From Acidobacteriota bacterium (lineage in GTDB: Bacteria > Acidobacteriota > Blastocatellia > UBA7656): DNA of 64,000 nucleotides. The notes beneath the pieces were generated by a model. It was not told the DNA's origin. It made no database searches and saw nothing but the letters and a program-made list of their open reading frames with translations. Shown piece after piece: positions 47,587 to 52,464 of the stretch. The position numbers and the translations under genes are program-made. The stretch covers positions 1-64,000 of the forward strand of contig JBFMDH010000037.1 of assembly GCA_040754075.1 (NCBI GenBank), given 5' to 3'. Numbering within the stretch: the stretch's first letter is position 1; every line of letters starts with the position of its first letter.

Positions 47587-47859
47587 ATGTCTCATCGAAA
47601 TACAACTGAACCTGTGAATGCAATGTTGAACTATGCCTATGCGGCTTTAGAGAGCCAAGTATTAATCGCGACCTTGGCTGCCGGACTCGATCCGACAATT
47701 GGCTATCTGCATTCCTATCGTCCGAACAGAAATTCATTGATTTATGATTTGATGGAACCCTTACGACCTAAAGTGGAGATGCAAATATTATCTGTCATTA
47801 AAACTTATACCTTTAGACAGAGTGATTTTCTCTCTCTGCAAAAGGAATCTGTCACCTAA
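47587..47859 (+). pseudogene. cas1: CRISPR-associated Cas1, C-terminal fragment
   Basis: A 90-residue frame that matches only the catalytic C-terminal domain of Cas1 (normally about 300-340 residues): EPVNAMLNYAYAALES, then AAGLDPTIGYLHSYRPNR and SLIYDLMEPLRPKVE, then a truncated end (FRQSDFLSL). The three metal-ligand positions of Cas1 appear present: Glu in ALES, His in GYLH and Asp in YDLMEP. The N-terminal beta-domain and the last helices are missing. No cas2, other cas gene or repeat array is near. It is best read as a relic of a lost CRISPR or Cas1-containing locus; a functional mini-Cas1 is unlikely. The ATG at 47587 lacks a ribosome-binding site. Confidence 0.75.
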
Positions 47860-47913: not shown

Positions 47914-48056
47914 CAGCAATTCTCAGTTTGACCTGATCGCATCAGAATCAGAGTGAGTTTGGCGCAAGCGCCCTCGCTTCTTGAGCCTATTTTCAACAAT
48001 TGCAGTCCAATCAATGGGCTGACCGGCAGCGCCATTTTCCAAACTGAGAATTGCTG
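47914..48056. mobile_element. 143-bp MITE with 17-bp terminal inverted repeats and 9-bp target duplication
   Basis: CAGCAATTCTCAGTTTG (47914-47930) and its exact reverse complement (48040-48056) bound a 143-bp non-coding element. The nine bases outside each end are identical, AAGACATAG (47905-47913 and 48057-48065), the signature of a target-site duplication. There is no open frame inside. It is a miniature inverted-repeat element that would need a transposase in trans; a 9-bp duplication is made by several IS families, so the parent is not identified. It sits between the cas1 fragment and the helicase gene. Confidence 0.88.
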
Positions 48057-48125: not shown

Positions 48126-51125
48126 CTAATGCATTAATGAAGAGTTGCCTTTAAACTCATTTAATAATCTGATTAAATCAGGATCAATTCTGCGGTTATC
48201 GCTGCCTCTAACAAACGCTAATACACTGTCTAGATCTTCTTTAAGAAGCCAACCTATAATATCTGTATCCAAATACGGTTTTCTCTTGTGATACTCTTTA
48301 GCAAGTCTAGTAGCGTCTACACGCTCCATATCCAATCTGACAAGCCGTAATGCATCATAATTTGGAACTCCTGCATCCACTAAGTAGGCTAAGGAAAGAA
48401 TTTCATCACTATAAGAAAATATGTTCCTTCGCTTCAATTCTTCTTCCACGAGGCGGTGAAACGCATATAATCCCCAAGGCAATAAATATTGTATTCTAGA
48501 GTAGATTACTTTTATTAGTTCCTCCAGAGAGTCTTTATATTCTGCTTTTGATTTCACACTTACCAAAGGAACTCCCGAAAGCCACTGTAAAATCACTTCT
48601 GTATATAGTCCTCCTAATTTGGGGCCTTCTAATTCAGCCATTCTTTTGGCTACTGGGCCAACAATATACTTGGCTTGATTAAAGTTAATTTTCCCGCCGA
48701 TCATTACCTTTCTCATTTGTTTAAGTTCCCAATTAGATAAGTTGAGTACATAATCACGTAAGTCAGATAAAGTCTCTATAGATAAACCAAGTTCTGCAAT
48801 CATATCAACCGAAGGTGCGCCAGGTTCAGCTAAAAACTTATCAACTACTTCAGTTTGGGATTGAATCAGCTGAGTTGCAATTTGTATCTCAGCGTCATCT
48901 AAATGTCTTAATGCAAATGAGCCTTCTAGTATTTGTTCTGGGAACATAAACTGTTTAGACGTTTTTGCATGTATTATACCAACGCGAAGTAGATTTATTG
49001 TTCCTCGCACTTTTCTTGTTATATTTTCTGGAAGTGCAACAGTCTCTAAAGTATCTAGCGTGAATTCCTTAGCATCAATGCTCCTTGATATTTCTTTAAT
49101 ATTTTCAGCCAGCGCACTATGCACAGGATCTATTCCTTTCATTGAGGGATCAAGGTAATTCTCAACTACAGCATTTACCTTTTCTGCACCTAGACTTGGC
49201 TCAAAAAGTATGGCTTGCCCTTCTCTATCAAAACCTGGACGACCAGCCCGACCAGCAATGTTCCAAAACGATCTTGGTGTAACCGGATTGTACCTTGCAG
49301 GTTTCCCTTTTTCCGGCGGTTCTCGTAAAGCCAGTGATTGGACAATAACTGATGAAAAAGGGAAGTTCACTCCTTCCGCTAATGTCGTTGTCGCATATAC
49401 ATAGTCAACATAATTCTGACGAATAGCTTCCTCCACAGACTGTCTTACGCGAGGAGGTAAACCAGCATGGTGATAAACTATGCGATTCTTCAGGAGAATA
49501 CGCATCTCTACAGATGCATACATTTCTCGTTCTAGCCTGGAATCTAATCTTTGAATTGTATCTGATTTATTTTCGTCTTCTGTTAATTTCTTCAAAAACC
49601 CATTTTCTTCTAACCAAATGCCTGTTTTCTTAGCCAAACTTTCACAAGTCCCTTTCCCTTTTGCCACAATTAAGACAGGGCCTACTCGACTTACTTTCTC
49701 AGCTAATTGGATTAACTGTTTCTCCTGTGTTTTTTCTAGAGAATCGACAATCCTAATTGAGGTGTTATCGGAGTAGTCGATCCAGCCTCCTTTCGCATTT
49801 TGCTTTTTAACGTGATAGACGCCAGCACGCATGCGTGTTGATCGCCTATCAGCAACAAGACCGCCTGGATTATCCCCTAGCCATTCAGCAAGCTCATCTA
49901 CATTTGGTGCAACTGCGGAAAGAAATACTATTCTCGTTTGTACTTTATATAAATTTCTAATTCTCCATAAATATAACTCAAGCAAAACTCCTCGATTTCC
50001 AGATTCGATATGATGCGCCTCATCTACAATGATCAAAGAAGCATTTGCCATGAAATCTACTCCCAATCGTAATAGTAAATCTGCTTTCTCTGGAGTTAAT
50101 ACCGCAACTGAGCAGGTTGCTATTTCTTTTTCTTCCGTTGTATTAAGCTCAATCATTTGTGGGCTAACTTGCACCACTGAAAAATTGAGAGGGGCAAAAA
50201 CATCGCTTAGCTCTGAGCAGATTTCCTGAACGAGAGCCTTAGAAGGAACAATATAAAGAATCTTTGTCTCAGGGTTATCGAGTAGTGTTTTTGCAATTAA
50301 TAGTCTGGCAAGAAAAGTTTTCCCTGTTCCTGTTGGTGCGGCGAATCCCCAACTATCATAATGATAATTCACAAGTCCTGCTTGAATTGCTTGAACCTGT
50401 GTAGCCCAAAGTTCGGCTGGAAATTTCATTTCCCTAAGATAGGGTAATAAATCGTGTTCAACATTAGATCGAGTTGCATAAGATCGCCGCTTATTAATAA
50501 TTGCAGCGAAAGCATTAATTTCTGTAGTGCTCATACCAATCGAAAGTTCTTTAGCTAGATTGGCAAGTATTTGGGATGCGAATTTATCTGGTGCTTGTTC
50601 TTCTCCTTGCTCATATTCTGCAAGTCGTAAAGCATCATAGGAAAGAACTAGATCTAATTCAGTTACATTCGCTTTAACAGGGGCAGAGCGATATTTTTTC
50701 ATTTCCCCATTAACTCCCAAATTTGAAAAGAAACCTTTTCTAGAAAATAAATCACCAAGTAATCCGGTTAAATCTTGTTCTTTCAAGATAGCAGAACTTA
50801 AGGCTGGTAATTCAGCAAGTTCATAAAGTAAAGCAGACCTTATCCGCATTTTTCTTTGGGTTATTTCTGAAAGGTCTTTATAACTTGAAAGTAATTCTGC
50901 TATTTCACCCGCAATAGAGCACAAATTTAGAGCGTCGTTAGACTTCCAACCAGGAGCACTGGATAGAACACTTTCTACGAAATAAGATAAACGAGCAACA
51001 GATCCATTACCAGATGGAAATTTTTGACCATAGCGATGCATCGCCAGTGATTGTCGAACCCATTGCAGATCACTAATAAAATCATGGTTATTTAAAACAG
51101 ACTTGATTTCGTCTATTACAAACAT
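48126..51125 (-). CDS. HamB-like superfamily 2 helicase (Hachiman-type defence)
   Basis: A 999-residue Ski2/Hel308-like helicase. Seen: an N-terminal helical region (1-230), Walker A APTGTGKT (263-270, Lys269), VPSKALVQE, Walker B DEAHH (368-372), FLSAVAPN (motif III), YHHAGLPPRVRQSVEEAI and YVYATTTLAEGVNFP (IV-V), and RAGRPGFDREGQAI (VI). A long C-terminal helical part (about 640-999) follows. The gene starts 10 bases inside the end of the nuclease-like gene, so the two are translationally coupled. A nuclease plus a large Ski2-type helicase in this order is the layout of the Hachiman anti-phage system (HamA-HamB), where HamB unwinds DNA and controls the HamA nuclease. Low GC compared with the flanks suggests transfer. 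Confidence 0.72.
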   Translation of the reverse strand: MFVIDEIKSVLNNHDFISDLQWVRQSLAMHRYGQKFPSGNGSVARLSYFVESVLSSAPGWKSNDALNLCSIAGEIAELLSSYKDLSEITQRKMRIRSALLYELAELPALSSAILKEQDLTGLLGDLFSRKGFFSNLGVNGEMKKYRSAPVKANVTELDLVLSYDALRLAEYEQGEEQAPDKFASQILANLAKELSIGMSTTEINAFAAIINKRRSYATRSNVEHDLLPYLREMKFPAELWATQVQAIQAGLVNYHYDSWGFAAPTGTGKTFLARLLIAKTLLDNPETKILYIVPSKALVQEICSELSDVFAPLNFSVVQVSPQMIELNTTEEKEIATCSVAVLTPEKADLLLRLGVDFMANASLIIVDEAHHIESGNRGVLLELYLWRIRNLYKVQTRIVFLSAVAPNVDELAEWLGDNPGGLVADRRSTRMRAGVYHVKKQNAKGGWIDYSDNTSIRIVDSLEKTQEKQLIQLAEKVSRVGPVLIVAKGKGTCESLAKKTGIWLEENGFLKKLTEDENKSDTIQRLDSRLEREMYASVEMRILLKNRIVYHHAGLPPRVRQSVEEAIRQNYVDYVYATTTLAEGVNFPFSSVIVQSLALREPPEKGKPARYNPVTPRSFWNIAGRAGRPGFDREGQAILFEPSLGAEKVNAVVENYLDPSMKGIDPVHSALAENIKEISRSIDAKEFTLDTLETVALPENITRKVRGTINLLRVGIIHAKTSKQFMFPEQILEGSFALRHLDDAEIQIATQLIQSQTEVVDKFLAEPGAPSVDMIAELGLSIETLSDLRDYVLNLSNWELKQMRKVMIGGKINFNQAKYIVGPVAKRMAELEGPKLGGLYTEVILQWLSGVPLVSVKSKAEYKDSLEELIKVIYSRIQYLLPWGLYAFHRLVEEELKRRNIFSYSDEILSLAYLVDAGVPNYDALRLVRLDMERVDATRLAKEYHKRKPYLDTDIIGWLLKEDLDSVLAFVRGSDNRRIDPDLIRLLNEFKGNSSLMH

Positions 51126-51937
51126 GATTTCCTCACTTGATCAATTTTGTCATACACGGATTTCGCAAGATCAGGAATTTCTTCTATGCACAGCACATCA
51201 ATTTCAATTTTCTTTTTGTTTTTTCGAGTTGCAAGTATAGATATTTCATCATCTAGTTTAGTTGATAGGTCAATAATTGCGAAACCAACATAATGAATCT
51301 TAGAATTGGAGTACGGTAATAATGCTTTACGTACTCTTGTTCGCTCAGGTTCTGAAAGACCTTCGATTCTATCTTTTGCCGCACCAAGATCAAAATCCCT
51401 GTCCACAGTAGAGTATTCATTGAGTGAGTTGAATATATCAGCAAAACAGGATTTATCATGATTAGCAGGTAGCCCGTCCGCAGAAGTCTTCATACTTGAT
51501 TTCACCTCTACAAATACGAACTCTACTGGATCAGAAAGTGGTTTATAAAGAACTAAATCCATCTTGTTGGCATTACCATTTTGTGTAGTTAAAAGTGATA
51601 ATTTGCTATACAGTTTTTTTAACCCAATTACTTCTTCAGCAAATACGCCAGCAGTTATTTCGCAGAAATGTGATTCTATAAAAGATAGAGCATCGGGTAG
51701 TCGATTAAGAGTGTCAATAATTGGTGTAAAGAATAATTCATCTTCAAAGCTTTTCTGAATTTGTGAAGGCTCTCGATAGAAAAAAGGGATCTTTTCAAAT
51801 AGATATTTATCTAATTTAATACCATTATTATTTCGGATTAATTCTGAAATGTAGACCGCCCGAACCATAGTCTTGGGGCAAGTAAAAGATGTACGGCAGA
51901 CTCTAACAAACTGTCCTAATCCGCTATTGGATAACAT
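51116..51937 (-). CDS. HamA-like (DUF1837-like) nuclease of a Hachiman-type system
   Basis: A 273-residue protein. The middle carries a PD-(D/E)XK-type nuclease signature: a helix with Glu101/Glu102, then KMDLVLYKP (Asp127) and VFVEVKSS (Glu144, Lys146). This matches the order and spacing I recall for HamA/DUF1837 proteins (acidic helix, Asp strand, E-x-K strand). A Ser/Asn-rich segment and a beta strand (YVGFAIIDLSTKL) follow. The start is the ATG at 51937; a second ATG at 51868 is possible. Assignment as HamA rests on this motif and on the coupled helicase gene; other nuclease-helicase defence pairs cannot be excluded without a profile search. Confidence 0.6.
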   Translation of the reverse strand: MLSNSGLGQFVRVCRTSFTCPKTMVRAVYISELIRNNNGIKLDKYLFEKIPFFYREPSQIQKSFEDELFFTPIIDTLNRLPDALSFIESHFCEITAGVFAEEVIGLKKLYSKLSLLTTQNGNANKMDLVLYKPLSDPVEFVFVEVKSSMKTSADGLPANHDKSCFADIFNSLNEYSTVDRDFDLGAAKDRIEGLSEPERTRVRKALLPYSNSKIHYVGFAIIDLSTKLDDEISILATRKNKKKIEIDVLCIEEIPDLAKSVYDKIDQVRKSCL

Positions 51938-52291: not shown

Positions 52292-52464
52292 TGGTCCTAA
52301 TTTGACGGACACCAGTATTGCTTAAACAATGAAAGATTATGAAAACACAAAAAGCAAAACTGGCTCGTCGAAAATATGATGAGGAGTTCAAACTCCAGTC
52401 CCTCAAGATGATTGACAATGGGCAGTCGGTTCGCTCAACGGCTCAAATTCAAGTTTCCATTTAA
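52292..52464 (+). mobile_element. IS3-family remnant: left end and truncated OrfA
   Basis: Begins with TGGTCCTAATTTGACGGACA at 52292, which looks like an IS3-type left terminal repeat. Then a 41-codon frame (52339-52464) encodes RRKYDEEFKLQSLKMIDNG, then QSVRSTAQIQ: the helix-turn-helix start of an IS3 OrfA transposase (S-x-EFK-x-x-x-L pattern). The frame ends early and no OrfB or right end follows. It is an inactive scar at the right edge of the accessory island. Confidence 0.7.

What the first reader, a model, noticed from the sequence alone, without database searches (positions are those of the whole stretch)
48126..51937. Hachiman-like nuclease-helicase pair in an AT-rich island
Two coupled minus-strand genes (10-base overlap): a 273-residue protein with Asp127, Glu144 and Lys146 in a PD-(D/E)XK arrangement, and a 999-residue Ski2/Hel308-like helicase. 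Gene order and sizes match HamA-HamB, but the nuclease is divergent enough by eye that it could be a new variant or a sister system.
Basis: partly seen in the sequence, partly recalled or inferred. Interest (0 to 1): 0.75.

Follow-up and report, generated by a model that had tools for sequence, protein, structure and literature searches.

The report
Divergent Hachiman phage-defence gene pair
Two overlapping bacterial genes encode a DNA-cutting enzyme and a partner helicase that belong to the known Hachiman anti-phage system, as a rare and sequence-divergent lineage that one defence-system model library (PADLOC) only half recognises.

Summary
Two minus-strand genes overlap by 10 nt in an AT-rich patch: a 273-aa protein with E93, D127, E144 and K146, and a 999-aa SF2 helicase with intact motifs. 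The small protein passes Pfam's HamA model (PF08878, 49 bits against a cut-off of 25). Its residues align with the catalytic D-(G)EXK motif of E. coli HamA (E138/K140), and its low-confidence AlphaFold model matches solved E. coli HamA best (Foldseek 2.5e-5; Z 10.8). The helicase matches PADLOC HamB models (6e-72), and a tree puts it with HamA-linked helicases, apart from Hel308 and other bacterial helicases (100/99). It is divergent: no PADLOC or NCBIfam HamA hit, about 15% identity to other HamAs, and the only close relative found is a frameshifted copy in a distant genome of the phylum (43-49%). It may lack the C-terminal OB-like domain of E. coli HamB. It sits among housekeeping genes beside a MITE, a cas1 fragment and a transposase remnant, consistent with horizontal acquisition. 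Expected mechanism: HamB senses abnormal DNA and releases HamA, which destroys cellular DNA; inferred from homology, not shown here.

The parts
51116..51937 (-). hamA-like gene: 273-aa PD-(D/E)XK effector nuclease (E93, D127, E144, K146)
   Evidence: Pfam PF08878 49.4 bits, cut-off 25; catalytic columns; profile match to other HamAs; fold match to E. coli HamA
48126..51125 (-). hamB-like gene: 999-aa SF2 (Ski2/Brr2-type) helicase with motifs PTGTGKT 264, DEAH 368, TTTLAEGVN 579, GRAGRPG 625
   Evidence: PADLOC HamB E 5.8e-72; tree; fold match 8vxa_A E 4e-21; motifs
51116..51125 (-). 10-nt overlap of hamA end and hamB start
   Evidence: ORF coordinates; similar overlaps in other HamAB loci
51130..51134 (-). 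Shine-Dalgarno-like GAGGA before hamB ATG
   Evidence: sequence

Best explanation
A two-gene Hachiman (HamAB) anti-phage defence system of a rare, divergent lineage. HamB, a Ski2/Brr2-like DNA helicase, is expected to bind HamA through its N-terminal helical region and hold it inactive while scanning intact DNA. On meeting single-stranded or damaged DNA made during phage replication, ATP-driven movement of HamB should free HamA. HamA is a metal-dependent PD-(D/E)XK nuclease and should then degrade phage and host DNA, aborting the infection. Shown here: gene pair, family membership, intact catalytic and helicase motifs, sporadic occurrence. Inferred from the E. coli system (PMC12278908): complex formation, DNA sensing, activation, defence.
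For: PF08878 HamA E 7e-13, over its cut-off. E93/D127/K146 invariant and E144 nearly so across 11 HamAs, matching the D-E(X)K motif whose E138A,K140A mutation abolishes E. coli defence. Profile-profile match to seven other HamAs: prob 95%, E 2.6e-8. The HamA model's two best PDB matches are E. coli HamA: Foldseek 2.5e-5 and 2.1e-4, Z 10.8 over 203-222 residues. Helicase: PADLOC HamB 241 bits. In the tree all HamA-linked helicases are split from Hel308 and other bacterial helicases with 100/99 support. HamB model: best Foldseek match 8vxa_A HamB, 4e-21. Gene order, size and overlap equal those of annotated HamAB loci. G290 carries both genes in the same order: HamA 43% identical, HamB 48-49%.
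Against: No PADLOC HamA or NCBIfam HamA hit for the nuclease. The two-sequence profile alone finds no PDB HamA and does not match the L073/L078 HamA subfamily. By pairwise sequence the helicase core is closer to eukaryotic ASCC3/Brr2 chains than to E. coli HamB, and these were not in the tree. By VIA the HamB model ties with Hel308 and Brr2. Models are low confidence: pLDDT 53 (HamA) and 60 (HamB). The HamA model was built with HamA relatives in its alignment. Defence itself is untested.
Confidence: 0.9

Rival explanations
1. It is a member of, or sister to, the PADLOC candidate system PDC-M23 (a HamA-like nuclease plus HamB-like helicase) and not of Hachiman proper.
For: PDC-M23A is the only PADLOC hit for the nuclease, E 0.03; PDC-M23B hits the helicase at 3e-64; like L042/L074 the nuclease keeps extra residues after the EVK strand.
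Against: The HamB hit is stronger (6e-72); the M23B helicases form their own clade (100/99) without the window protein; profile match to M23A is weak (47%) compared with HamA (95%); the M23A proteins tested fail the Pfam HamA cut-off, the window protein passes it.
Confidence: 0.05
2. A helicase-nuclease pair for housekeeping DNA repair and not for defence.
For: The helicase core resembles Hel308/Brr2.
Against: Found in only 1 of 58 genomes, itself included, among the nearest relatives; distinct GC and codon-position composition; NCBIfam Hel308 scores are far below cut-off, 180 against 887 bits and 144 against 1200; the partner is a HamA; no repair gene next to it.
Confidence: 0.03
3. A decayed, non-functional Hachiman remnant.
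For: It lies beside a cas1 fragment, a MITE and a transposase remnant; the G290 relative is frameshifted and truncated.
Against: Both window reading frames are full length with all catalytic and helicase motifs and a translational overlap.
Confidence: 0.07

Closest known systems
Hachiman (HamA-HamB) of E. coli, PDB 8VX9/8VXA/8VXY (PMC12278908)
   Same: Gene order; DUF1837/HamA nuclease with D-E(X)K; Ski2/Brr2-type helicase; best structural match for HamA and first in the Foldseek ranking for HamB
   Different: HamA about 9-13% identical in structural alignments; HamB 999 aa against 1174; the model aligns only to HamB residue 1090 and has no strands after residue 640, so the C-terminal OB-like domain may be absent; motif reads VEVK where the canonical one is GEXK
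Frameshifted HamAB copy in genome G290 (L009), same phylum, other family
   Same: Same two genes in order; HamA 43% and HamB 48-49% identical; same catalytic residues
   Different: hamB is split by a frame break and truncated near residue 740; hamA stop directly abuts the hamB ATG with no overlap
PADLOC candidate PDC-M23 (A and B)
   Same: HamA-like nuclease followed by HamB-like helicase; PDC-M23B models score highly
   Different: Separate helicase clade; the M23A proteins tested do not pass the Pfam HamA cut-off

Membership tests
Hachiman (HamAB) | HamA/DUF1837 protein (PF08878) above the curated cut-off | tested here: met
   49.4 bits, cut-off 25, residues 41-263
Hachiman (HamAB) | Catalytic D-(G)EXK nuclease motif in HamA | tested here: met
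   D127, E144, K146 align with the conserved HamA columns; the G position is V here and G in the G290 relative
Hachiman (HamAB) | Adjacent HamB helicase of the HamA-associated clade | tested here: met
   PADLOC HamB 5.8e-72; tree split 100/99 from Hel308 and other bacterial helicases
Hachiman (HamAB) | Intact SF2 helicase motifs including DEAD/DEAH box | tested here: met
   PTGTGKT, DEAH, LSAV, TTTLAEGVN, GRAGRPG
Hachiman (HamAB) | HamB N-terminal helical region (NAH) that binds HamA | tested here: inconclusive
   Residues 1-248 predicted all helical but at low confidence, block means 33-59
Hachiman (HamAB) | C-terminal OB-like domain, as in E. coli HamB (not shown to be universal among HamBs) | tested here: inconclusive
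   No strands after residue 640 in the model, which aligns up to HamB residue 1090 of 1174
Hachiman (HamAB) | Phage defence through DNA degradation on DNA damage | not testable with these tools
   Needs experiment
PDC-M23 | PDC-M23A and M23B models both hit | tested here: not met
   M23A E 0.03 over 26 residues only; helicase outside the M23B clade
Hel308 | NCBIfam Hel308 equivalog score above cut-off | tested here: not met
   144 bits against cut-off 1200; 180 against 887 for PRK02362

The most novel reading that the evidence does not exclude
A deep-branching Hachiman sub-type whose HamB lacks the C-terminal OB-like domain and whose HamA differs enough that sensing or nuclease control works differently from the E. 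coli system.
Probability: 0.15. Interest if true: 0.4.

Novelty: new member of a known kind. Interest (0 to 1): 0.25.

Why it matters
It shows that Hachiman extends to lineages that a defence-finding model library only half detects: the nuclease gets no HamA call from PADLOC, so the system can be missed or filed as a helicase only. The pair adds a distant data point for which HamA and HamB features are essential (E93, D127, E144, K146) and which may be dispensable (the C-terminal OB-like domain). The general biology is already known.

Tried and rejected
PADLOC HamA models: no hit to the nuclease up to E 1; read as limited coverage of that library, since the Pfam HamA cut-off is passed. Collection scans with the HamA protein and with a two-row HamA profile found no relatives in genome contigs or viral contigs; patterns chosen from so divergent a protein are insensitive, so this is not proof of absence. 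tblastn of HamA against plasmids found nothing. Phmmer of HamA against PDB found nothing, nor did the two-row profile; only the wider profile hit 8vx9_A, driven by the other HamAs in it. An empty insertion site could not be shown: nadA and the TIG-domain gene that flank the pair lie on different contigs in family relatives. Hel308 and Lhr-like identity was rejected by score and tree. The first quick tree tied the window helicase to L073 on a long branch; with more rows the window pair is its own branch. Literature: no paper in the held library names PDC-M23.

Full report
Observation. The two ORFs are exactly where stated: 51116-51937 (-, 273 aa) and 48126-51125 (-, 999 aa), sharing bases 51116-51125. 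The helicase ATG is preceded by GAGGA. The patch is AT-rich: GC 0.39 and 0.37 in 48-52 kb; hamA 0.349 and hamB 0.386 with GC3 0.26-0.27, against 0.51 and GC3 0.57 for the flanking nadA and TIG-domain genes.

Nuclease. Pfam HamA (PF08878) matches residues 41-263 with 49.4 bits, cut-off 25. PADLOC gives no HamA hit, only PDC-M23A at E 0.03, and NCBIfam gives none. An alignment of 11 HamAs from this window, plasmids and whole genomes has E93, D127 and K146 invariant and E144 nearly so. The E. coli HamA motif that aligns there is the one whose E138A,K140A mutant loses defence (PMC12278908). A later paper describes the motif as D-GEXK (PMC12799240); the G is V in this protein and G in the G290 relative. 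The profile of the window and G290 proteins matches seven other HamAs with 95% probability, E 2.6e-8, but PDC-M23A only with 47% and one HamA subfamily not at all. An HMM from the seven other HamAs gives 16.3 bits; the best of 2000 shuffles gives 7.2. The AlphaFold model is poor overall (pLDDT 53, pTM 0.60), but its best PDB matches are the two E. coli HamA chains: Foldseek 2.5e-5 and 2.1e-4, Z 10.8 over 203 and 222 residues. A third Hachiman chain follows at Z 8.5, and the next chain from another family at Z 8.0.

Helicase. PADLOC HamB E 5.8e-72; Hel308 models score 120-180 bits, far under their cut-offs. All SF2 motifs are intact. A tree of 39 helicase cores separates the HamA-linked helicases, PDC-M23B included, from Hel308 and other bacterial helicases with 100/99 support; an earlier quick tree with Lhr-like and ligase-associated rows agreed. 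The window and G290 form their own branch (100/100), apart from the M23B clade (100/99); the grouping with the L073/L078 HamB type (91/85) is weaker. ASCC3 and Brr2, the nearest PDB chains by pairwise sequence, were not in the tree. The HamB model (pLDDT 60) has E. coli HamB 8vxa_A as best Foldseek match, 4e-21. By VIA it ties with Hel308 and Brr2 but aligns over more residues to HamB, 710 against 599. The alignment ends at HamB residue 1090 of 1174 and the model has no strands after residue 640, which suggests that the C-terminal OB-like domain described for E. coli HamB is absent. The N-terminal 248 residues are predicted helical, as in the HamA-binding NAH region, at low confidence.

Distribution. 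HamA above Pfam's cut-off occurs in 5 of 396 genomes sampled across the phylum, and the window's own type in 1 of 58 genomes of the nearest relatives, the window's genome itself. A search of 162 genomes of the class found only the window and one distant HamA next to a helicase. In 300 genomes of G290's family only G290 has it. G290's hamB is broken into frames and truncated. The spread and the composition fit horizontal transfer; this is inference, since no empty site could be shown.

Surroundings. Neighbours are ordinary: NadA, a LuxR/MalT-type regulator, menaquinone biosynthesis, TPR and TIG-domain proteins. No other defence gene was seen next to the pair. Downstream lie a 143-bp MITE-like element (47914-48056) with 17-bp perfect inverted repeats, a 9-bp target duplication and two near-identical copies elsewhere, each with its own 9-bp duplication, and a cas1 C-terminal fragment. 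Upstream is a truncated transposase start.

Verdict. This is a Hachiman system, divergent in sequence, new as a member but not as a kind. The mechanism (HamB senses abnormal DNA and releases HamA to degrade DNA) is taken from the characterised E. coli system and was not tested here.

Noticed in passing
window 47914-48056: 143-bp MITE-like element with 17-bp perfect terminal inverted repeats and a 9-bp target duplication (AAGACATAG); near-identical copies at C8:173901 and C7:111246 of the same genome each have their own 9-bp duplication, and a 77% copy lies at C14:31164. No autonomous partner was identified.
   Followed up: partly
window 47587-47859: C-terminal fragment of a cas1 gene (PF01867 positions 181-262), only 31% identical to the genome's intact cas1 at C43:49907, so probably a remnant of a different CRISPR adaptation module.
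   Followed up: partly
window 52339-52464: Truncated start of a transposase orfA (HTH_Tnp_1, E 0.0026, below cut-off), 41 codons.
   Followed up: no
L043 (Nostoc sp. plasmid pn3) 1432-5661: A single 1409-aa protein annotated HamA that contains both a HamA and a HamB-type helicase part, a natural fusion.
   Followed up: no
L075, L077, L079, L082 (IMG/VR contigs): PDC-M23A/B pairs whose nuclease aligns with the HamA catalytic columns and whose helicases fall beside HamB: PDC-M23 looks like a Hachiman relative.
   Followed up: partly
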